From Stackebrandtia albiflava (GTDB taxonomy: Bacteria > Actinomycetota > Actinomycetes > Mycobacteriales > Micromonosporaceae): a stretch of 64,000 bases of DNA. Location: positions 1 to 64,000 of the forward strand of contig NZ_VLLL01000008.1 in the NCBI RefSeq assembly GCF_007994225.1. Direction: 5' to 3'. The notes under the pieces were generated by a model. The model made no database searches, was not told the DNA's origin, and worked only from the letters and a program-made list of their open reading frames with translations. The position numbers were made by a program, and so were the translations under genes. Below are positions 23,770 through 61,504 of the stretch, piece by piece. The first letter of the stretch is position 1; every line of letters begins with the position of its first letter.

Positions 23770-23877
23770 CGCCTTGGGTGGCCTGGGGCCCATCGACATG
23801 CCTCGAATAAGCCCTAATGTCCGATTTTATCCCGCCCTACGACCACCCAAGGCGGGCCTACGACCACCCAAGGCGGA
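23770..23877 (+). repeat. Intergenic 21-bp-arm repeat element, copy 1
   Basis: Left arm CGCCTTGGGTGG (23770-23781) is answered by its exact complement at 23843-23854 and again at 23864-23875. Start-to-start distances are 73 and 21 bp. The 61-base middle contains ATGCCTCGAATA and ATGTCCGATTT, shared with copies 2 and 5. It lies between the ABC-transporter promoter region and the 3' end of the hydrolase gene. It does not encode a protein. Confidence 0.85.
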
Positions 23878-23886
23878 GGAAAGGGG

Positions 23887-24816
23887 TCACTCCTTGCACC
23901 AGCGCAGGATCTCGGACGTGACCGTGTCGGGCGCCTCCAGTTGCGGGAAGTGCCCGACGCCGCGCAGCAGTCGCCACTCGTAGTTCGCCGTCACGTACCG
24001 GCCGGAGCCCTGTGCGGTCCGGGGCAGGATGCAGGTGTCCCGGGAGCCGTGCAGTTGCAGCGTCGGCACCTTCAACGGTTCCTGAAGCAGCCGGACGAAC
24101 CTGCGGCCCGCCACCCGCAACGCCGTGCGCAGCGCCCAGCGGTACGCCTCCAGCGCGCAGAACGCCGCCTGTGGCAGCTGGATGGCGTCCCGGCACGCCC
24201 TGACGTAGGCGTCGAACTCCGGAGTTCCGCGCCACTGTGGACCCGCCCAGTGGCTCATGAGCGACGCCACCATCGCCGCGTCGTCCCGGGTCACGACGTG
24301 CTCGAACCGGGGAAGCTGGAACTTCAGGATGTGACGGCTGGCCGCCAACTGGCCGCGCGGGTCCACCGCCAGGGCGGCCCGCTGCCGCAGCGGGTGGGCC
24401 GAGGACAGCACCACGAGCCGCCGCACACTGCGCGGATGGAAGCCGGCGGCGGCGAAACCGAGCAGACCGCCCAGGTCGTGGCCCACCACCACCGCGTCCC
24501 GTTCACCGAGCGCCCGGATCAGCCCGATCACGTCCGAGGCCATCGTGTAGGCGTCGTAGCCGCGGGGCGGTTTGTCACTGGCGCCGTAGCCGCGCAGGTC
24601 CACCGCCGCGACCCGGTAACCGGCTCCGGCGAGCGCCGGCATCTGGCGGTGCCACGTCCACCAGAACTCGGGGAAGCCGTGCAGCAGCAGGATGAGGGGA
24701 CCGGTGCCCTGCTCGGCGACGTGGAACCTGATGCCGTTGGCGTCGACGAAGCGGTGCCGCCACGGCCCGTCGATGAGCACCACGCTGTCGTCCAGGACAG
24801 GGCGGGTATCTCGCAT
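23887..24816 (-). CDS. Epoxide-hydrolase-like alpha/beta hydrolase
   Basis: A 309-residue protein. It has the oxyanion motif HGFPEFWWTW (residues ~46-55), the nucleophile elbow GHDLGG with Asp114, and a C-terminal His in GHFPQLEAP. An Asp nucleophile marks epoxide hydrolases and haloalkane dehalogenases. HGFPE and DLRGYGASDKP favour the epoxide-hydrolase branch. The usual two lid Tyr residues cannot be placed with certainty. It ends close to repeat copy 1 and is followed upstream by a strong terminator. Confidence 0.88.
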   Translation of the reverse strand: MRDTRPVLDDSVVLIDGPWRHRFVDANGIRFHVAEQGTGPLILLLHGFPEFWWTWHRQMPALAGAGYRVAAVDLRGYGASDKPPRGYDAYTMASDVIGLIRALGERDAVVVGHDLGGLLGFAAAGFHPRSVRRLVVLSSAHPLRQRAALAVDPRGQLAASRHILKFQLPRFEHVVTRDDAAMVASLMSHWAGPQWRGTPEFDAYVRACRDAIQLPQAAFCALEAYRWALRTALRVAGRRFVRLLQEPLKVPTLQLHGSRDTCILPRTAQGSGRYVTANYEWRLLRGVGHFPQLEAPDTVTSEILRWCKE

Positions 24817-33377: not shown

Positions 33378-34745
33378 ATGAGAATCACCCCGTGGAGCCG
33401 CCGCAGCGGCAGAGTCATGCTCGCGTTCGGTACCGCGGTCGTACTGTTGTCGGCCGCCCCCGCGACCGCGATGGCCGACCCGCCCGAGGTCTCCGTCCCC
33501 GACGACGGCTCCCGGCCGGAAGGCGACCCGGGCACCGTCGGAGGCGATCCACTGCCGTCCTCCGGTGACTCCCCGGTGGCCGGACCCGGCGTCAGCCGCG
33601 GCCCCTACGCCAACCGGATCGCGCAGCTCGCCAAGGAGGTCGCGGTCCTGGGCGAGTCCACCACCGCGGCGGGCGAGGAGGTCACCCTGCGGGGCGAGAC
33701 CGTCGTCGCTGCCCGCGCGTACTGGCTCGACCTCCAGACGCAGGCCGACCAACTGGCCGAACTCGCCGCAGAGATGGCCGCCCAGGCGTACCAGGAGTCG
33801 GCGTCCCAGGTACAGGGCGTCACCGACGAGTTCGACGACCTGTTCGCCGTCGATCCCGGACTGCTCGGTGACGACCGCACCACCGTGCAACGGCAGGCCG
33901 ACGCGGCGGCCGACGACGCCGCCGTCGCGCTGGCGGCCCTCGACGCGGCGGTCGCCGCCGAGGCGATCGCCGCCAACGACTACGCCGACCTCGTCGAGGA
34001 ACTCGACGCGCAGACGAAGAAACTCGAAGACCTCGTCGAGGAGAACGCCGAGGCGATCGCCGTCCAGGAGGAACAGGCGGGCCGCGAGTCGAAGTACGAA
34101 CTGGGCGACATCGGCACCGACGTGGACGGCTGGCAGGCGGCGAAGGCCGCCCAGGACGCCGTCCGGTACGCCGTCGCGCAGGTCGGGAAACCCTACGAGT
34201 GGGGAGCCGAGGGGCCGTACACGTTCGACTGTTCGGGCCTGGTGCAGACCGCCTACGCCAAGCAGGGCGTCAACCTCCCCCGGGTCGCCAACGACCAGTT
34301 CCGCGCCACCCGTTCCATGGCCGTAGACGTCGAGAAGATGCTCCCCGGCGACCTGATCTTCTACGGGGACCGGGCCGGGGACTGGACCTCGGTCTACCAC
34401 GTCGGCATGTACATCGGCGACGGCATGATGGTGCACGCGCCGCGCCCCGGGGACGTGGTGAAGGTCGTACCGGTGTGGTTCAGCGACTTCTTCGGCGCGC
34501 ACCGGGTCGTCGCGGCGGTCGAGGTCGACGACGGTGACGACGGCTCCAACGAACCGGGCGACGGCGGCGACCCCGGTGACGGCGACGGCGGTGACGGCGG
34601 AGAGCCCGGTGACGGCGGCACACCGTCCACCAGGCCGGACCCGACACCGAGCGAGGAGACCCCGTCGGATCCCGCGACCAGCGGTTCCGGTGACGGCGGC
34701 GACGGCACGGAGTCCGGCGAACCCGAACCCACTCCGTCCGGCTGA
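33378..34745 (+). CDS. NlpC/P60-family cell-wall hydrolase
   Basis: A 455-residue secreted protein with AAGG before its ATG. Residues ~1-35 are a signal peptide. Residues ~75-250 form a long coiled coil (LAKEVAVLGESTTAAGEEV ... LVEELDAQTKKLEDLVEEN) like RipA-type proteins. Residues ~265-380 are the NlpC/P60 endopeptidase with Cys285 (DCSG), His341 (HVGMYIG) and His353 (VHAP). The final ~75 residues are a disordered Gly/Asp/Pro tail. It probably cuts stem-peptide bonds of peptidoglycan during division. Repeat copy 2 follows it. Confidence 0.93.
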   Translation: MRITPWSRRSGRVMLAFGTAVVLLSAAPATAMADPPEVSVPDDGSRPEGDPGTVGGDPLPSSGDSPVAGPGVSRGPYANRIAQLAKEVAVLGESTTAAGEEVTLRGETVVAARAYWLDLQTQADQLAELAAEMAAQAYQESASQVQGVTDEFDDLFAVDPGLLGDDRTTVQRQADAAADDAAVALAALDAAVAAEAIAANDYADLVEELDAQTKKLEDLVEENAEAIAVQEEQAGRESKYELGDIGTDVDGWQAAKAAQDAVRYAVAQVGKPYEWGAEGPYTFDCSGLVQTAYAKQGVNLPRVANDQFRATRSMAVDVEKMLPGDLIFYGDRAGDWTSVYHVGMYIGDGMMVHAPRPGDVVKVVPVWFSDFFGAHRVVAAVEVDDGDDGSNEPGDGGDPGDGDGGDGGEPGDGGTPSTRPDPTPSEETPSDPATSGSGDGGDGTESGEPEPTPSG

Positions 34746-34780
34746 GCCGACCCGGCGGGCACCACACCGGCGGTCCACTC

Positions 34781-34886
34781 CGGCTTGGTGGGTTGAAATG
34801 CCGGCTTGGTTGGTCATACGACGGCTGAAAATCGGACATCAGGTCTTATTCGAGGCATATCGATCGTCGTGCGGCCAACCAAGCCG
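34781..34886 (-). repeat. Intergenic 21-bp-arm repeat element, copy 2 (reversed)
   Basis: Read on the minus strand, the left arm CGGCTTGGTTGG starts at 34886. Its complement begins 73 bases on (34802-34813), and a further copy with one mismatch is at 34781-34792, again 21 bases away. The middle shares ATGCCTCGAATA and ATGTCCGATTT with copies 1 and 5 but the arms differ from theirs. It lies after the NlpC/P60 stop. Confidence 0.85.
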
Positions 34887-34898
34887 ATTCTGTCGAGT

Positions 34899-34949
34899 CG
34901 GCTACCGGCTGCGCCGGGCCATTCCGCCGGCTACCGGCTGCGCCGGTAG
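34899..34949. repeat. 19-bp direct repeat and hairpin
   Basis: CGGCTACCGGCTGCGCCGG occurs at 34899-34917 and 34928-34946 (period 29). The second copy lies in a hairpin CTACCGGC/GCCGGTAG at 34931-34949. It stands in the 464-base gap 34746-35209, after repeat copy 2, and may end transcription of the NlpC gene. From 34950 to 35209 I see no gene or clear signal. Confidence 0.6.
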
Positions 34950-35209
34950 CATTGCCCACCAGGCCGAGGAACGCGTCCGGCAGGCCGGTGCGGAGTGCTC
35001 GGGACACCCACACCGTCTCCGTCGGAAGGCGGCCCCGGCCGACGGCCGTGACCACCCCCGCGCGGCACGGCTACGGCGGGTGAATCGGGTGCTGGCAGCG
35101 GGCAGGACGTTGCGGCGGTATGGCACCGTTGACGACGGCGGCTCTACGGTCCACCCGTCCGCGCCATGACCGCCATGCCGACACACGAACTTCCGGTTGG
35201 AGCCAGCAG

Positions 35210-37906
35210 ATGGACAACAACAGTTGCGTGGCGTGCGGTACCCGGTTGCCGGCAGGTGCCCAGCGCTGCCCGCAATGCGGTGTACCTCTGGCGCCACCGC
35301 CCGGCGGTTTCGCGCCGCCCGGGGCCGCCCAGTACCCGCCGCAGAGTCCACCGACGCCCGCGCCCTGGCAGCCGGAACAGGGTAGGCCGTCCGGACCGCC
35401 GCCCGGCCCGGAGTTCTCGCAACACTTCGAACAGTCGACCGGCTGGGAGGAGGGAGCACCGCCGCCGCCTCCGCCTTCGCAGGGGCAACCGTGGGGTGCG
35501 CCCCCGCCTCCGCAGCAGCAGGGTGGCTGGCAGCCCCCGCCTTCGGGGCCGCAGTGGGGTCCGCCGGGTGCGCCGACGTCGGGTGTGCCGGCGAGTGGTC
35601 CTCCGGTGTCGGGTCCGCCTCAGCAGTGGGCGCCTCCGCCGCCCCCGCCTTCGCAGGGACAACCGTGGGGTGCGCCCCCGCCTCCGCAGCAGCAGGGTGG
35701 CTGGCAGCCCCCGCCTTCGGGGCCGCAGTGGGGTCCGCCGGGTGCGCCGACGTCGGGTGTGCCGGCGAGTGGTCCTCCGGTGTCGGGTCCGCCTCAGCAG
35801 TGGGCGCCTCCGCCGCCCCCGCCTTCACAGGGCCAACCGTGGGGTGCGCCCCCGCCGCCCCCGCCACAGCAGGGCGGCTGGCAGTCCCCGCCACCGGCGC
35901 CACCGGAACCGCAGTGGGGCCCTCCGCAGCCCCCGGCCGAACGTCCCGCCGCGCCACCCGTCCCCGCGCAGCCGGAACCGCCCGCCGCACCGGAGCCCGC
36001 GCCGGCCGCCGCCTCACCGGCGGTGCCGTTCGCGGTGCCGTCCGAGGACCCGGGCACCGGCATCCTCGGACGGCCACGCCGCCGCGTCGAGGCGGTTCCG
36101 CCGCCGGTGCCTCCCGCACCGGCCCCGCTCCAGGACAGCCCTAAGTCCACTGAGGATCCCGCTCCGGTGGCGGAGTTCGCGTCCGCCGCACCCCCGGCGA
36201 TGCCGGACGCACCACCCGCCATGCCGGACGCGCCCCCGGCCATGCCGGCGACAGCCGCGCCGCCTCCGCTGCCACAGCAGCCGGCCGCCGCGCCCGTCGC
36301 CGATCAGGCGCCCGCCGCCGCGGACTCCGGGGACGGTGACGAGGCCGATGTCGCCCTGTGGGCGGGCATGTCCGGTCCCGGCCCCGCGACCGAAGCAGAA
36401 CTGTCCGATGAGGACAAGGCTGCGATGGCCGAACTCGCCGATGACGACTTCGGGGACTTCGACGACGACGATGACGATGACGACGTGACCCCCGCGTCCG
36501 CCGACGCCCCCGCCGCCGAGCAGCAGGCGACCGCCGCCGCGCCGGACGAGGTCCCGCCGACATCCGCCGACCGCGACACCCCGCCGGCCGCCGTCGCCGA
36601 GGAGCCTGCGCCGTTCTCCACGCCACCGTCGTCCGCGCCTGCGCCGTTGACGGGTGAGGCCCCGCCCGTGGATGAGCCCGCGGCGTTCGCCACGCCGCCG
36701 TCGTCGGCGCCTGCGCCGTCGACGGGTGAGGCGCCGCCGGTGGAGGAGCCTGCGGCGTTCTCGACGCCGCCGTCTTCCGCTCCTGCGCCGTTGACGGGTG
36801 AGGCGCCGCCGGTGGAGGAGCCCGCGCAGTTCTCGACTCCGCCGTCCTCCGCTCCTGCGCCGTTGACCGGTGAGGCACCCGAACCGGCCTTCACGCCCGA
36901 GGAACCGCCCGCCGACCAGCCGCTCACGCCCCCGACCTGGGAGGCGGACGCATTGCGGGCTCAGGCCGAGGCGGAGGCCGCCGACGCGCCGGTCGAAAGC
37001 CGCCCGCAGTCCGAAACCGAGGCGCCGGAGGAGCCCGCGCAGTTCTCGACACCGCCGTCTTCCGCGCCTGCGCCGTTGACGGGTGAGGCCCCGCGGGTGG
37101 AGGAACCTGCGGCGTTCTCGACGCCGCCGTCTTCCGCGCCTGCGCCGTTGACCGGTGAGGCCCCACCCGCTGAGGAACCTGCGCCGTTCTCCACGCCGCC
37201 GTCGTCGGCGCCCGCACCGTTGACGGCGGAGGAACCGGCGGAGACGCCGGTTCCGGAGTCGGCTCCGGTTTCGCCGCCGGCCGCCGCCCCGGTGAGCGGC
37301 GCGGCCTTCGGGCGGGTGAGTGTCCCCAATCTCGTCGCTCCGGCCGAGGAGGTGCCGGTCAGGGCCTTCGAGGGGCAGACGTACCGTGCCGGGCAGGTCA
37401 CGCCGTCTTCCCCCGACGTGACCGACGCCCCCGACGTCGCGGACTGGCAGGTGCCGGTGGAGGGCGGCGACCGCTCCGACGTTCCACAGTCGATGGACCC
37501 GTGGGACGCGTTCGGCAGGCGGGAGCCGGAACCGCCGGCGGCCCCCGAACCGCCGCCCGCGCCGCCCGCGCCGCCGGCGTCGGCTCCGGCGGAGTCCCCG
37601 TGGGAGGCGTTCGCGCAGCCGTGGCTGGAGTCGGAGCGTCCCTCCGAGCCCGAGGTCCGGGAGGCGGCACCGGCGGTGTCGGCGTCACCGGCCTCGGCGG
37701 GAGCCGCGGACGGGCAGTCGCCGCTCGCGGAATCCGCTCCGGCGGTGCCGGACGGTCCCGCGCGAGGAGTCGCACGGGTGCCGAACGCGCAACCGGTGAC
37801 GGCGGCGGACCTTCCCCCCGACCTGCCTCGCCCGGTGGGTCGTGTCTACGGCGGGCCTCCGCCGGGTGACCAGCCGCAGAGCTGGCCGCCTCCGCCGCCC
37901 CGCTGA
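35210..37906 (+). CDS. Zinc-ribbon protein with very long proline/alanine repeat region
   Basis: An 898-residue protein starting at ATG 35210. Residues ~5-25 hold a zinc ribbon (CVACG ... CPQCG). Residues ~30-270 are Pro/Gln/Gly/Trp-rich with three copies of a 58-residue unit. Residues ~340-460 include an Asp-rich acidic stretch. Residues ~465-700 contain about seven copies of a 22-residue unit with FSTPPSSAPAPLTGEAP. The tail repeats PWDAFGRREP and PWEAFAQPW. It is almost all low complexity and cytoplasmic by lack of a signal. Function unknown; a multivalent scaffold is possible. Confidence 0.75.
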   Translation: MDNNSCVACGTRLPAGAQRCPQCGVPLAPPPGGFAPPGAAQYPPQSPPTPAPWQPEQGRPSGPPPGPEFSQHFEQSTGWEEGAPPPPPPSQGQPWGAPPPPQQQGGWQPPPSGPQWGPPGAPTSGVPASGPPVSGPPQQWAPPPPPPSQGQPWGAPPPPQQQGGWQPPPSGPQWGPPGAPTSGVPASGPPVSGPPQQWAPPPPPPSQGQPWGAPPPPPPQQGGWQSPPPAPPEPQWGPPQPPAERPAAPPVPAQPEPPAAPEPAPAAASPAVPFAVPSEDPGTGILGRPRRRVEAVPPPVPPAPAPLQDSPKSTEDPAPVAEFASAAPPAMPDAPPAMPDAPPAMPATAAPPPLPQQPAAAPVADQAPAAADSGDGDEADVALWAGMSGPGPATEAELSDEDKAAMAELADDDFGDFDDDDDDDDVTPASADAPAAEQQATAAAPDEVPPTSADRDTPPAAVAEEPAPFSTPPSSAPAPLTGEAPPVDEPAAFATPPSSAPAPSTGEAPPVEEPAAFSTPPSSAPAPLTGEAPPVEEPAQFSTPPSSAPAPLTGEAPEPAFTPEEPPADQPLTPPTWEADALRAQAEAEAADAPVESRPQSETEAPEEPAQFSTPPSSAPAPLTGEAPRVEEPAAFSTPPSSAPAPLTGEAPPAEEPAPFSTPPSSAPAPLTAEEPAETPVPESAPVSPPAAAPVSGAAFGRVSVPNLVAPAEEVPVRAFEGQTYRAGQVTPSSPDVTDAPDVADWQVPVEGGDRSDVPQSMDPWDAFGRREPEPPAAPEPPPAPPAPPASAPAESPWEAFAQPWLESERPSEPEVREAAPAVSASPASAGAADGQSPLAESAPAVPDGPARGVARVPNAQPVTAADLPPDLPRPVGRVYGGPPPGDQPQSWPPPPPR
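35463..35850 (+). repeat. 174-bp tandem repeat inside the proline-rich gene
   Basis: A 174-base unit (58 codons) is repeated head-to-tail with near identity; for example CTGGCAGCCC starts at 35527 and 35701. A third, partial and diverged copy follows from ~35810. The near identity means recent duplication or gene conversion, so copy number may vary between strains. Confidence 0.85.
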
Positions 37907-42844: not shown

Positions 42845-43061
42845 GATCCGCGTCCGCCGTGCCCGTGGAACGTGCCCCTTCTCACGGCCGGGGCGCCGCC
42901 CCGCCCGCCGGGATCGCGGCCCGGCACGTGACCGGTGCCGCCGCGAGACGGGTTGTCGACGATTCATGGACCGGTTGTCGGCCTGTCATGGACCCGTCTG
43001 GAATCTTCGGCGCGACCGGAGCCGACCGGCCCGGTCGTGGTTCCCCAACGAAGGAGACCCC

Positions 43062-43262
43062 ATGAGGATCTTCGTCACGCTCGGCGACCTCCTGCTCGCC
43101 AAGGCGGTCCGTCAGGCTCCGGCCGAGGCGGCGTGCTCGATACGCACCTACTACGAGTACAAGTGCGGCCAGGGCATGTCCCGGTACCGCCGCAGCTGCA
43201 CCCGGCACCCGAACTGCACCACCACCTGCACGAGTTGGGTGTGGGCCGGCTCGTGCCTGTGA
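43062..43262 (+). CDS. Six-cysteine small peptide, possible secreted or modified peptide
   Basis: A 66-residue peptide with AAGGAGA before its ATG. The first ~23 residues (MRIFVTLGDLLLAKAVRQAP) look like a leader: amphipathic, no classical signal. The rest has six Cys in 42 residues, with many Arg, Tyr and Thr (YYEYKCGQGMSRYRRSC ... TTTCTSWVWAGSC). I have seen similar leader-plus-Cys-rich peptides in actinobacteria but cannot name a family. It stands alone between senX3 and gpmA, on the opposite strand. It could need oxidative folding like the Cys-rich protein at 46.4-47.4 kb. Confidence 0.65.
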   Translation: MRIFVTLGDLLLAKAVRQAPAEAACSIRTYYEYKCGQGMSRYRRSCTRHPNCTTTCTSWVWAGSCL

Positions 43263-43276
43263 CCGGGTGACGTACC

Positions 43277-43360
43277 CGGCTTGGTTGGTCATACGACGGG
43301 AATCCGGCCCGGAATCGTGCCGGTAAGCGCTTGCGCGTCGTCGTATGACCAACCAGGCCA
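43277..43360. repeat. Intergenic 21-bp-arm repeat element, copy 3 (minimal)
   Basis: CGGCTTGGTTGGTCATACGA begins at 43277, and its near-complement ends at 43360 (two mismatches at the outer end); arm starts are 72 bases apart. Only one arm is found on each side. The middle is diverged from copies 1, 2 and 5. It sits between the convergent six-Cys peptide and gpmA genes, where it would also serve as a terminator hairpin. Confidence 0.75.
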
Positions 43361-43373
43361 ACGGAAACGGGGG

Positions 43374-44123
43374 CTACTTGCGGCCCTGGGCCGCCACCGC
43401 GGCCGCCGCCTCCGCGGCCGCCTCCGGGTCGAGGTAGGCGCCGCCCCGGGTAACGGGCCGCATCGCGTCGTCGAGTTCGTACCGCAGCGGCATCCCGGTG
43501 GGGATGTTCAGGCCCGAGATGTCCTCGTCGGAGATGTCGTCGAGGTGCTTGACCAGCGCCCGCAGCGAGTTGCCGTGCGCGGCGACCAGCACGGTCCGCC
43601 CGGCGCGCAGGTCGGGGACGATCTGGTCGTACCAGTACGGCAGCATCCGCTCCTTGACGTCCTTCAGGCACTCCGTCAACGGCGCGAGCTCCGGCGGCAG
43701 TGACGCGTAACGCGGGTCGTGGACCTGCGAGTGCTCCGCGTCGGGCGCGATCGGCGGCGGTGGCGTGTCGTAGGAGCGGCGCCAGATCATGAACTGTTCC
43801 TCGCCGTACTGCTCCAGCGTCTCGGCCTTGTTCTTGCCCTGGAGCGCCCCGTAGTGCCGCTCGTTCAGCCGCCACGACCGCTTCACCGGGATCCAGTTGC
43901 GGCCGCAGGTGTCCAGGGACAGTTCCGCGGTGCGGATCGCGCGGCGTTGCAGCGACGTGTGCACGACGTCGGGCAGCAGGTCGTGCTCGGCCAGCAGCTT
44001 GCCGCCGTGCCGGGCCTCGGCCTCCCCCTTGCCGGTCAGGTTCACGTCCACCCAGCCGGTGAACAGGTTCTTGGCGTTCCATTCGCTTTCGCCGTGCCGC
44101 AGCAGCACAAGTGTCGACGTCAT
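43374..44123 (-). CDS. gpmA: 2,3-bisphosphoglycerate-dependent phosphoglycerate mutase
   Basis: A 249-residue enzyme of glycolysis and gluconeogenesis that interconverts 3- and 2-phosphoglycerate. The catalytic His10 is in [20 protein letters not shown], the [15 protein letters not shown] segment and [15 protein letters not shown] complete the active site. ATG 44123 is chosen over an upstream in-frame start since it gives the family N-terminus. Lying next to senX3-regX3 is the ancestral actinobacterial order. Confidence 0.97.
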
Positions 44124-49265: not shown

Positions 49266-49422
49266 CGCTTGGTCCCCGCCCGGTGGCCCCCTCTTCCCGC
49301 TTGGTCCCCGTCCGGTTGGCGAATCGCGCCCGAAATGCGTGGTTCATACCCATGTGGGTGCCAATGGCGGGGACCAAGCGCACCACGGCGGGGACCAAGT
49401 GGAACGGGGCGGGGACCAAGTG
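49266..49422 (+). repeat. Intergenic 21-bp-arm repeat element, copy 4 (five arms)
   Basis: CGCTTGGTCCCC occurs at 49266-49277 and 49298-49309; its complement or a one-base variant at 49369-49380, 49390-49401 and 49411-49422. The right arms are spaced exactly 21 bases, and the inner arms are 71 bases apart, as in the other copies. The arm sequence is a third type. The 59-base middle is not clearly alignable with theirs. It lies in the 394-base gap between the MauE operon and selD, which holds no gene. Confidence 0.8.
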
Positions 49423-50534: not shown

Positions 50535-50630
50535 GGAGGCGGGCAGGTGTCTGGTGGCCCTCACGATCTTCAAAATCGATGCGGCCGGGTCGCCCGGCCG
50601 GGCGGGTTCGATTCCCGTACGCCTCCGCCA
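50535..50630 (+). tRNA. selC: tRNA-Sec (anticodon TCA)
   Basis: The 5' end GGAGGCG pairs with CGCCTCC at 50620-50626, followed by a discriminator G and an encoded CCA (50628-50630). The anticodon loop CTTCAAA gives TCA, which reads UGA. A long GC-rich variable arm (GCCGGGTCGCCCGGC-type hairpin) and the T loop GGTTCGATTCC are as expected for selenocysteine tRNA. It starts 12 bases from the divergent selD ATG and lies 65 bases before selA. Confidence 0.95.
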
Positions 50631-59924: not shown

Positions 59925-60398
59925 ATGGCGGACTTGGCGGCACTGCTCGACGCGTTGGAGGCCGACTGGGAACCGACCGGGGACCGGTCGTACCTGGTGC
60001 GGCTACCGGGCGTCCACAAGCTCAAGACCAACTGCAACCTGATCGTCGAGGACCACGCGTTGCGCGTCGAGGCGTTCGTGGTGCGCCACCCCGAGCAGGA
60101 CCACGAACGCCTGTGGCGACTCCTGTTGCGCCGCAACGCCGGGATGTACGGGGTGTCGTTCGCGGTGGACGACCACGGCGACGTGTACCTGATGGGACGG
60201 GTGCCGCTGTCCACTATAGATGAGGCGGAACTGGACCGGCTGCTGGGCGCGGTGTTGACCTACGCCGACGAGGTGTTCGACACCGCGCTGGAGATCGGCT
60301 TCGCCGACTCCATCCGCCGGGAGTGGCGGTGGCGCCTGTCGCGGGGCGAGTCCACCCGGAACCTGGCGGCCTTCACCCACCTGCGCCCCACCGACTGA
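59925..60398 (+). CDS. YbjN-domain protein
   Basis: A 157-residue protein with the YbjN fold (LPGVHKLKTNCNLIVEDHALRVEAFVVRHPEQDHERLWRLLLRRN, then VDDHGDVYLMGRVP). Its gene lies nine bases after mshA, the same order as in mycobacteria (Rv0486-Rv0487). YbjN proteins resemble type III secretion chaperones; the role in actinobacteria is not known. Confidence 0.88.
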   Translation: MADLAALLDALEADWEPTGDRSYLVRLPGVHKLKTNCNLIVEDHALRVEAFVVRHPEQDHERLWRLLLRRNAGMYGVSFAVDDHGDVYLMGRVPLSTIDEAELDRLLGAVLTYADEVFDTALEIGFADSIRREWRWRLSRGESTRNLAAFTHLRPTD

Positions 60399-60422: not shown

Positions 60423-60528
60423 CGCCTTGGGTGGTCTGAGGCCCATCGACGTGCCTCGAATAGGCTCGAATGTCCGATTTCTGGCGGGCCTACGACCACC
60501 CAAGGCGGGCTCCAGACCACCCAAGGCG
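60423..60528 (+). repeat. Intergenic 21-bp-arm repeat element, copy 5
   Basis: CGCCTTGGGTGG at 60423-60434, its complement at 60496-60507 and 60517-60528; spacings of 73 and 21 bases equal those of copy 1, 36.7 kb away. The middle keeps GTGCCTCGAATA and ATGTCCGATTT. It lies between the convergent ybjN-like and ectD genes. Confidence 0.85.
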
Positions 60529-60613: not shown

Positions 60614-61504
60614 TCAGCGGGGCACCGGGGTGAAGTCCCGTGTACCGATGAACTCCGGCCGGGGCTGGGGCGCCGCGAACGGTTCCACGCAGGTGTTCTC
60701 GACGCTGTTGAACACCACGAAGAAGTTCGAACGCGGGAACGGCGTGATGTTGCCGTTCGACCCGTGCATGCAGTTGCAGTCGAACATGGTCGCCGAACCG
60801 GCCGGTCCGGTGAACAGTTCGATGCCGTGCTTCTCGGCGAGCACACTGAGGCTGGTCTCGTCGGGAGTGCCGATCTCCTGCTCCTTCAGCGACTCCCGGT
60901 AGTGGTCCTGCGGGGTCTCGCCCACACAGGACACGAAGGTCTTGTGGGAGCCGGGCATGATCATCAGCCCGCCGTTGTAGGCGTGGTTGTCGGTCAACGC
61001 GAACGACAGGCTCACCGCGCGCATCCGGGGCATGCCGTCCTCGGCGTGCCAGGTCTCGAAGTCGGAGTGCCAGTAGAACGGATTGCCGCCGAAACCGGGC
61101 TTGTAGTTGACCCGGCTCTGGTGCACGTACACGTCGGACCCGAGGATCTGCCGGGCACGGCCCGCCACCCGCTCGTCACGCACCAGCGCGGCGAACAGTT
61201 CCGAGATCTTGTGCACCTCGAAGATCGACCTGACCTCGTCGGAGCCCTTCTCCCGCACCACGCGTTCGTCGCCGTCGAGCGACTCGTCGGTCAGCAGCCG
61301 GTTCAGTTCGTTCTGGTACTGCGCCAGCTCACCCGGCGACACCAGTTCGTCCACCGTGAGGAAACCGTCGTCGGCGTACCCGTCGAGGGTGGGCCCGTCG
61401 ATCGGGCCGTCGGAGGCCGTCCCGTACACCACCGGGTCCTCGTTGCGGTACAACATGACCGGTTCACGGCCGGAACGTGTCGGATAGAGGTCGCGAATCG
61501 TCAC
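60614..61504 (-). CDS. ectD: Ectoine hydroxylase EctD
   Basis: A 296-residue Fe(II)/2-oxoglutarate dioxygenase that turns ectoine into 5-hydroxyectoine. The metal ligands are His146 and Asp148 (YWHSDFE) and His247 (CNCMHGSNG). The signature region around [19 protein letters not shown] is complete. GTG start overlaps the ectC stop by four bases. Last gene of the operon. Confidence 0.97.

What the first reader, a model, noticed from the sequence alone, without database searches (positions are those of the whole stretch)
23770..23877. Dispersed intergenic element with self-complementary arms and 21-bp steps (five copies in the window)
Copy 1 shows the plan: 12-bp arm, 61-base middle, complementary arm, then another arm exactly 21 bp on. 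Four other intergenic places (34781-34886, 43277-43360, 49266-49422, 60423-60528) have the same plan, with inner arm starts 71-73 bp apart. The 21-bp step recurs in copies 1, 2, 4 and 5, i.e. two helical turns, so arms face the same side of the DNA. This fits multi-site protein binding, as at Tn7-like transposon ends, REP/MITE elements or nucleoid sites. I know of no described family with this geometry. All five lie between genes.
Basis: partly seen in the sequence, partly recalled or inferred. Interest (0 to 1): 0.85.

Follow-up and report, generated by a model that had tools for sequence, protein, structure and literature searches.

The report
Helix-phased repeats at gene ends
An actinobacterium carries about 60 small scattered DNA elements, most of them just past the ends of genes, built of repeated arms spaced by whole turns of the double helix; they look like mobile landing pads for an unidentified protein.

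Summary
The core motif occurs 36 times in the 5.55-Mb genome (reversed control 0) and in none of 60 relatives; the arm/inverted-arm architecture gives 50 self-complementary matches (control 0). The five window copies are not one family: 1 and 5 are type B, 2 is type A, 3 has A arms with another middle, 4 is type C. CTTGG-core spacings fall at whole helical turns: direct 21, 31-32, 41 bp; inverted 42, 63, 73-75, 84 bp, with one exception at 66. Of 50 elements with an adjacent gene 3' end, 42 lie within 45 bp of the stop, median 20. Within a subfamily the two arms of one element pair no better than arms of different elements, against selection on an RNA or ssDNA hairpin. Three genomes of two other genera carry diverged versions, 79-80 bp or one turn shorter. 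No Y1/RAYT transposase fits. Best reading: a REPIN-like repeat whose arms are double-stranded binding sites for an unidentified protein at 3' gene boundaries.

The parts
23770..23877 (+). Copy 1, type B: one left arm (23770-23791), conserved middle, right arm 1 (about 23833-23854), right arm 2 (about 23854-23877); the right end lies about 10 bp from the stop of the minus-strand gene at 23887
34781..34886 (-). Copy 2, type A, reverse orientation: outer arm about 34781-34802, inner arm 34802-34823, conserved middle, inverted arm 34865-34886; follows a plus-strand gene ending at 34745
43277..43360 (.). Copy 3, A-type arms 43278-43298 and 43339-43359 with a different middle; before the 3' end of the minus-strand gene at 43374; related to G000:C1:341196-341284
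49266..49422 (.). Copy 4, type C (arms CGCTTGGTCCCCG): two left arms 32 bp apart, three right arms 21 bp apart, inner inverted spacing 74
60423..60528 (+). Copy 5, type B: arms 60423-60444, 60486-60507, 60507-60528; convergent junction between the gene ending at 60398 and the minus-strand gene at 60614

Best explanation
These are copies of a dispersed, REPIN-like (miniature, non-autonomous) repeat. Its arms are double-stranded DNA binding sites, about 20 bp with a CTTGG core, for one or more unidentified sequence-specific proteins. The protein(s) would load side by side at 21-bp (two-turn) steps on one face of the helix and meet, in inverted orientation, across about seven turns. Because most elements are kept just downstream of stop codons, I infer that the bound complex acts as a 3' gene boundary (a transcription roadblock or terminator, or a supercoiling insulator between neighbouring or converging genes). 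Shown: repeat family, phasing, 3'-end position, lack of element-level arm covariation, near-identical copies at unlinked loci. Inferred: the protein, its binding, the boundary function and how copies spread.
For: Spacing at whole helical turns in three arm families with different middles: direct 21 in all 52 A and B steps; C 21 (18), 31 (5), 32 (4), 41 (2); inverted mostly 73-75, with 63 and 84, plus 42; statistics. One genome of another genus has elements about one turn shorter (67-69 bp instead of 79-80). Arms of one element do not pair better than arms of different elements: A (23) 3.04 mismatches against 3.05 permuted, B (26) 3.73 against 3.28, G026 (12 of 13) 3.92 against 3.70; yet arms differ as a set between types (A+B pooled 3.41 against 4.92, 0 of 5000 permutations as low). 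That fits a trans-acting binder better than cis pairing. Position: of 56 elements 27 tandem, 20 convergent, 2 divergent, 6 undetermined, 1 inside a predicted ORF; 42 of 50 with an adjacent 3' end lie within 45 bp of the stop, median 20; in 23 of 27 tandem cases the 3' end is nearer than the next gene's 5' end (my count). Ordinary hairpins with stems of 9 bp or more: 2 of 55 element-bearing 3' ends, 18 of 86 element-free ones (searched lengths differ, 68 against 87 nt). Copies 81/82 identical at unlinked loci C1:1822027 and C2:619977.
Against: No protein is identified and there are no binding or expression data. One element (C1:51401, spacing 66) is off phase by about 3 bp. The spacing events are few and partly related by descent; the 94-bp case is explained by a decayed inner arm and was dropped. 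The hairpin-depletion test is weak: with at least 40 nt searched, stems of 9 or more 2 of 38 against 18 of 86 (p 0.034), stems of 8 or more 4 of 38 against 20 of 86 (p 0.14); with at least 70 nt, 2 of 32 against 12 of 68 (p 0.22). Some elements lie beside an ordinary hairpin by eye (L024, L033). Eight of 50 elements with an adjacent 3' end are more than 45 bp from it. RNA folding of the A and B consensus is very stable (-36 to -46 kcal/mol), so an RNA role is not excluded.
Confidence: 0.5

Rival explanations
1. Non-autonomous mini-transposon (MITE): the arms are terminal and subterminal transposase sites, and the helical phasing reflects the need to pair two ends on a very short DNA.
For: Inverted ends; in G026, G356 and G377 the elements seem to end at CTTGG...CCAAG (by eye); near-identical copies at unlinked loci; 19 congener stretches (42,068 nt) around the matching sites hold no arm pair; arms differ as a set between types.
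Against: No target duplication in the flanks inspected by eye; no autonomous copy with these arms seen; length fixed at 79 bp in all 13 exact G026 copies, which I think unusual for MITEs (recalled); strong 3'-end placement.
Confidence: 0.25
2. RNA-level element: a mobile transcription terminator or mRNA 3'-end stabilising hairpin that works in either orientation.
For: Position just after stop codons in both orientations (tandem 14 against 13); consensus RNA folds at -36 to -46 kcal/mol on both strands; ordinary hairpins somewhat less frequent at element-bearing 3' ends; some matching junctions in congeners show plain hairpins (by eye).
Against: No element-level compensatory change; helical-turn spacings have no evident meaning for RNA; extra same-orientation arms and a conserved middle are not needed for a terminator; TTTT within 15 nt outside an end in only 3 of 50.
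Confidence: 0.2
3. Classical REPIN moved by a RAYT (Y1) transposase as an ssDNA hairpin.
For: Inverted arms about 71-74 bp apart, close to the 71 bp reported for GI REPINs (PMC3116915, passages); intergenic; clusters of extra units.
Against: PF01797 finds no match in G026 (one contig), G356 and G377, and in the own genome only a 53-position match beside a TnpB-like ORF. Six typed arm units fold at best about 1 sd better than shuffles; near the ends GTAG is found in 3 and CTAC in 3 of 49 elements. No compensatory pairing, whereas the REPIN paper calls it common.
Confidence: 0.05

Closest known systems
REPINs / REP elements with RAYT (Pseudomonas fluorescens GI; PMC3116915, passages)
   Same: Short dispersed intergenic inverted doublets with a nearly fixed spacing of about 71-74 bp, near-identical copies and extra units
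   Different: No RAYT found, GTAG rare, arms hardly palindromic, no element-level compensatory change, direct steps at helical turns
CGTC-tagged REPs (PMC3733652, passages)
   Same: Palindromic repeats without a dedicated transposase; CGTC is present near an end in 16 of 23 type A elements (GACG in 14 of 23)
   Different: No CGTC counted in the 26 type B elements (GACG in 1); single arms are hardly palindromic; the paper names Proteobacteria, Chlorobi, Bacteroidetes, Spirochaetes and Thermotogae for them, not actinobacteria
BIMEs of enterobacteria (gyrase/IHF binding recalled; alternating units from the abstract of PMC2817692)
   Same: Multi-unit repeats reported as protein-binding sites
   Different: Units alternate in orientation in BIMEs; here same-orientation steps of 21 bp flank one inverted junction
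MITEs
   Same: Inverted ends, no gene, multiple copies
   Different: No target duplication seen; nearly fixed length
Tn7-like / Mu-like transposon ends (about 22-bp repeated transposase sites; recalled)
   Same: Several about 21-bp sites per end, ends inverted
   Different: No cargo or transposase; only about 50 bp between the ends; no duplication seen
Intrinsic terminators
   Same: Position after stop codons and strong inverted repeat
   Different: Conserved middle, tandem arms, helical phasing, T run rare

Membership tests
REPIN/RAYT | Linked or genomic RAYT (Y1) transposase | tested here: not met
   PF01797: own genome only a 53-position match beside a TnpB-like ORF; none in G026, G356, G377
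REPIN/RAYT | GTAG-type tag beside each REP | tested here: not met
   Within 24 nt of an end, GTAG in 3 and CTAC in 3 of 49 elements
CGTC-tagged REP | CGTC tag beside a palindrome | tested here: inconclusive
   CGTC in 16 of 23 type A, none counted in 26 type B; single arms hardly palindromic
REPIN/RAYT | Each REP is itself a palindrome | tested here: not met
   Of six typed arm units, the A left and B right units fold about 1 sd better than shuffles, the A outer unit 0.4 sd, the others not
REPIN/RAYT | Inverted doublet of fixed spacing in intergenic DNA | tested here: met
REPIN/RAYT | Compensatory changes between the two sides | tested here: not met
   within A, B and G026
MITE | Terminal inverted repeats | tested here: met
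MITE | Target-site duplication | tested here: inconclusive
   None seen by eye in the flanks; no closely related empty site available
MITE | Related autonomous element | tested here: inconclusive
   No long copy noticed among the arm places that one search printed (a part of 159); pair searches reached about 119 bp between arm centres only
Intrinsic terminator | Stem-loop followed by T run at gene 3' end | tested here: inconclusive
   Stem and position met; TTTT within 15 nt outside an end in 3 of 50; no RNA data
Tn7-like end | Transposase genes bounded by the repeated sites | tested here: not met
   No gene-sized stretch between the arms of the elements fetched; no wider pair search was made

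The most novel reading that the evidence does not exclude
A mobile class of 3' gene boundary element: a lineage-specific DNA-binding protein stacks on one face of the helix over phased arms just past stop codons, so that termination or supercoil insulation is set by a selfishly spreading nucleoprotein site instead of an RNA hairpin, and its arms co-evolve with the protein at genome level (A, B, C arms here; other arms in other genera).
Probability: 0.3. Interest if true: 0.8.

Novelty: new variant of a known kind. Interest (0 to 1): 0.58.

Why it matters
Dispersed palindromic repeats in bacteria are usually read as RNA or ssDNA hairpins. Here natural variation in arm spacing by whole helical turns points to double-stranded protein binding, in several arm families and with related elements in two further genera. 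If right, it gives actinobacteria a boundary element at gene ends and a clear route (DNA pulldown with a phased probe) to its protein. It also suggests that REPIN-like repeats can exist where no RAYT is found.

Tried and rejected
RAYT/Y1 mobilisation: rejected. Insertion into pre-existing palindromes: complementarity of the two flanks is compositional only (49 own elements, 6.80 against 6.66 permuted; 14 others, 7.14 against 6.76). Element-level hairpin covariation: absent. Spread on phages or plasmids: no match for copy 1 in plasmids or copy 2 in phages, none in viral contigs for the core pattern. Rfam at gathering score: only a tRNA-Sec in the window. Core pattern in genome contigs: 0 (the own genome and very near ones may be left out there). 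The pattern CTTGGTTGG...CCAACCAAG at 77-81 bp in genome contigs: 23 stretches, 4 of them (5 places) from one Micromonosporaceae MAG; the other 19, one place each, I take as chance and did not examine. Spacing 94 (L023) was first counted as a turn-step and then dropped because its inner arm is decayed. A first hairpin test (stems of 9 or more at 1 of 53 against 15 of 94) was replaced because the lengths searched differed more.

Rows dropped before tests: two of 51 (L023 at C2:456046 and a spurious L028 match) and one of two identical G026 copies, two of 51. The context counts rest on my own simple codon-usage gene finder, not on a curated annotation; it missed genes (the gap 34745-36961 in the window is not plausible). 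Window copies 3 and 4 and the type C elements are not in the 56. Papers: listings only, except passages of PMC3035245, PMC3733652 and PMC3116915.

Full report
Check of the observation. The five places are as described. Recomputed CTTGG/CCAAG centres give inner inverted distances of 74, 74, 73, 74 and 74 bp and direct steps of 21 bp, with one of 32 in copy 4. In the whole genome (G000, 5.55 Mb in 13 contigs) the core motif of copies 1, 2 and 5 occurs at 36 places with up to 3 mismatches, against 0 for the reversed pattern, and in none of 60 relatives, four of them congeners. An arm / inverted-arm pattern finds 50 self-complementary matches, control 0 (one element is counted twice). The short arm motif numbers 159 in G000 and 22-28 in each of four congeners, but its reversed control is also high (135 in G000), so one search is the better evidence.

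Organism. The genome's name is not given. Congener G004 has a contig of 6,841,557 bp, the published length of Stackebrandtia nassauensis (PMC3035245, passages), so the genus is probably Stackebrandtia (inference).

Families. Type A arms read CGGCTTGGTTGGYC..., type B CGCCTTGGGTGGYC..., with one shared conserved middle. The core is 81-82 bp in 46 of the 51 matches (counted; one match is spurious and a few have other or decayed middles). Commonly one arm on one side faces two on the other; L007 has seven. Other elements have A or B arms with other middles (L031, L032, L033, L036, L051), as does window copy 3. Type C (CGCTTGGTCCCCG) has window copy 4 and eight further places, usually with two or more arms on both sides. 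One search listed 60 clusters in 64 fetched loci; window copies 3 and 4 come on top.

Helical phasing. Distances between arm centres: direct, A 21 (26), B 21 (26), C 21 (18), 31 (5), 32 (4), 41 (2); inverted, A 63 (1), 73 (4), 74 (21), 75 (1), B 73 (6), 74 (16), 94 (1), C 73 (1), 74 (5), 84 (2). A wider scan of four genomes with exact A/B arms found one more inverted pair, at 42 bp (C9:89500), and between about 89 and 119 bp only pairs that include an outer arm and the 94-bp case with a decayed inner arm. One element is off phase (C1:51401, 66 bp). Fourteen hand-picked non-modal spacings, the 66 included, cluster at multiples of 10.5 bp: best fitted period 10.6, V-test p 1.7e-6; seven spacing classes give p 0.001 (permutation 0.0007). 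They are not all independent. RNA pairing would not ask for this; arms on one face of double-stranded DNA would.

Hairpin or sites? If pairing in RNA or ssDNA mattered, the arms of one element should match each other better than arms of different elements. They do not: A (23) 3.04 mismatches against 3.05 permuted; B (26) 3.73 against 3.28, i.e. slightly worse; G026 (12) 3.92 against 3.70. Pooled A and B do (3.41 against 4.92), because arms differ by type. Arms therefore changed as a set, as expected for sites of a shared factor. The consensus can still fold strongly as RNA (-36 to -46 kcal/mol), so an RNA role stays a rival.

Position. With a simple gene finder, 56 elements fell into 27 tandem, 20 convergent, 2 divergent and 6 undetermined gaps, and 1 inside a predicted ORF. 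Over the 50 with an adjacent 3' end the nearest stop is a median 20 bp away, 42 within 45 bp, the farthest 445, in both orientations. In 23 of 27 tandem cases the 3' end is nearer than the next gene's 5' end (my count). Plain hairpins with stems of at least 9 bp were found at 2 of 55 element-bearing and 18 of 86 element-free 3' ends; p is 0.034 with at least 40 nt searched and 0.22 with at least 70 nt. This hints that elements stand in for terminators but does not prove it, and some elements lie beside a hairpin (L024, L033, by eye). TTTT lies within 15 nt outside an end in 3 of 50.

Spread and relatives. Two copies at unlinked loci differ at one of 82 positions, so the element copies itself or is copied. 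Nineteen congener stretches (42,068 nt, G001-G004) around the sites matching window copies 1-5 hold no arm pair; the two genes flanking copy 5 are not adjacent in the congeners where both were found, and these genomes are too distant to show exact empty sites. In 354 family genomes, three genomes of two other genera rise above control: G026 (14, control 0), G356 (5, control 1), G377 (4, control 0); other relatives have 0-2 matches, as expected by chance. With exact CTTGGTTGG arms they give 13, 5 and 4, control 0. All 13 of G026 are 79 bp, those of G356 79-80, those of G377 67-69, i.e. one turn shorter; two of the four G377 matches look like one locus on two contigs. They share the CTTGGTTGG ends, and 8 of the 15 fetched carry ATGTC or its complement in the middle as the main family does; the inner arms differ.

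Mechanism and limits. I prefer a dispersed, REPIN-like repeat whose arms bind an unidentified protein on one helix face at 3' gene boundaries. Binding, function and mode of spread are inferred. RAYT-driven REPINs are largely excluded: PF01797 gives only a 53-position match beside a TnpB-like ORF in G000 and nothing in G026, G356 and G377. The REPIN spacing (71 bp for GI) and its compensatory changes were read as passages (PMC3116915). The survey of GTAG and CGTC repeats (PMC3733652, passages) does not name Stackebrandtia, Streptomyces, Micromonospora or actinobacteria in its main text; type A elements do contain CGTC near an end in 16 of 23, type B none, so a link to CGTC repeats is open for type A only. 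I found no description of this family in the searches; absence from that library is not proof.

Noticed in passing
L039 (G000:C1:874232-874498): One A-type element is interrupted by a MITE-like insert of roughly 180-190 bp with its own inverted ends and flanking TTA/TTA (by eye).
   Followed up: no
L051 (G000:C3:56528-58040): Two nearly identical B-arm elements with another middle lie 1432 bp apart, apparently in a segmental duplication.
   Followed up: no
window 50535-50630: A tRNA-Sec gene.
   Followed up: no
window about 42966-43262: A small ORF ending in a cysteine-rich stretch just before copy 3; G002 has a similar small ORF at the matching junction (read by eye).
   Followed up: no
L059 (G000:C1:1757367-1757528): Partial Y1 transposase match beside a 443-aa TnpB-like ORF, perhaps a decayed IS605-type element.
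   Followed up: partly
G000:C9:89500-89546: A 47-bp near-perfect palindrome with B-type ends, arm centres 42 bp (four turns) apart; may be an ordinary terminator or a minimal element.
   Followed up: no
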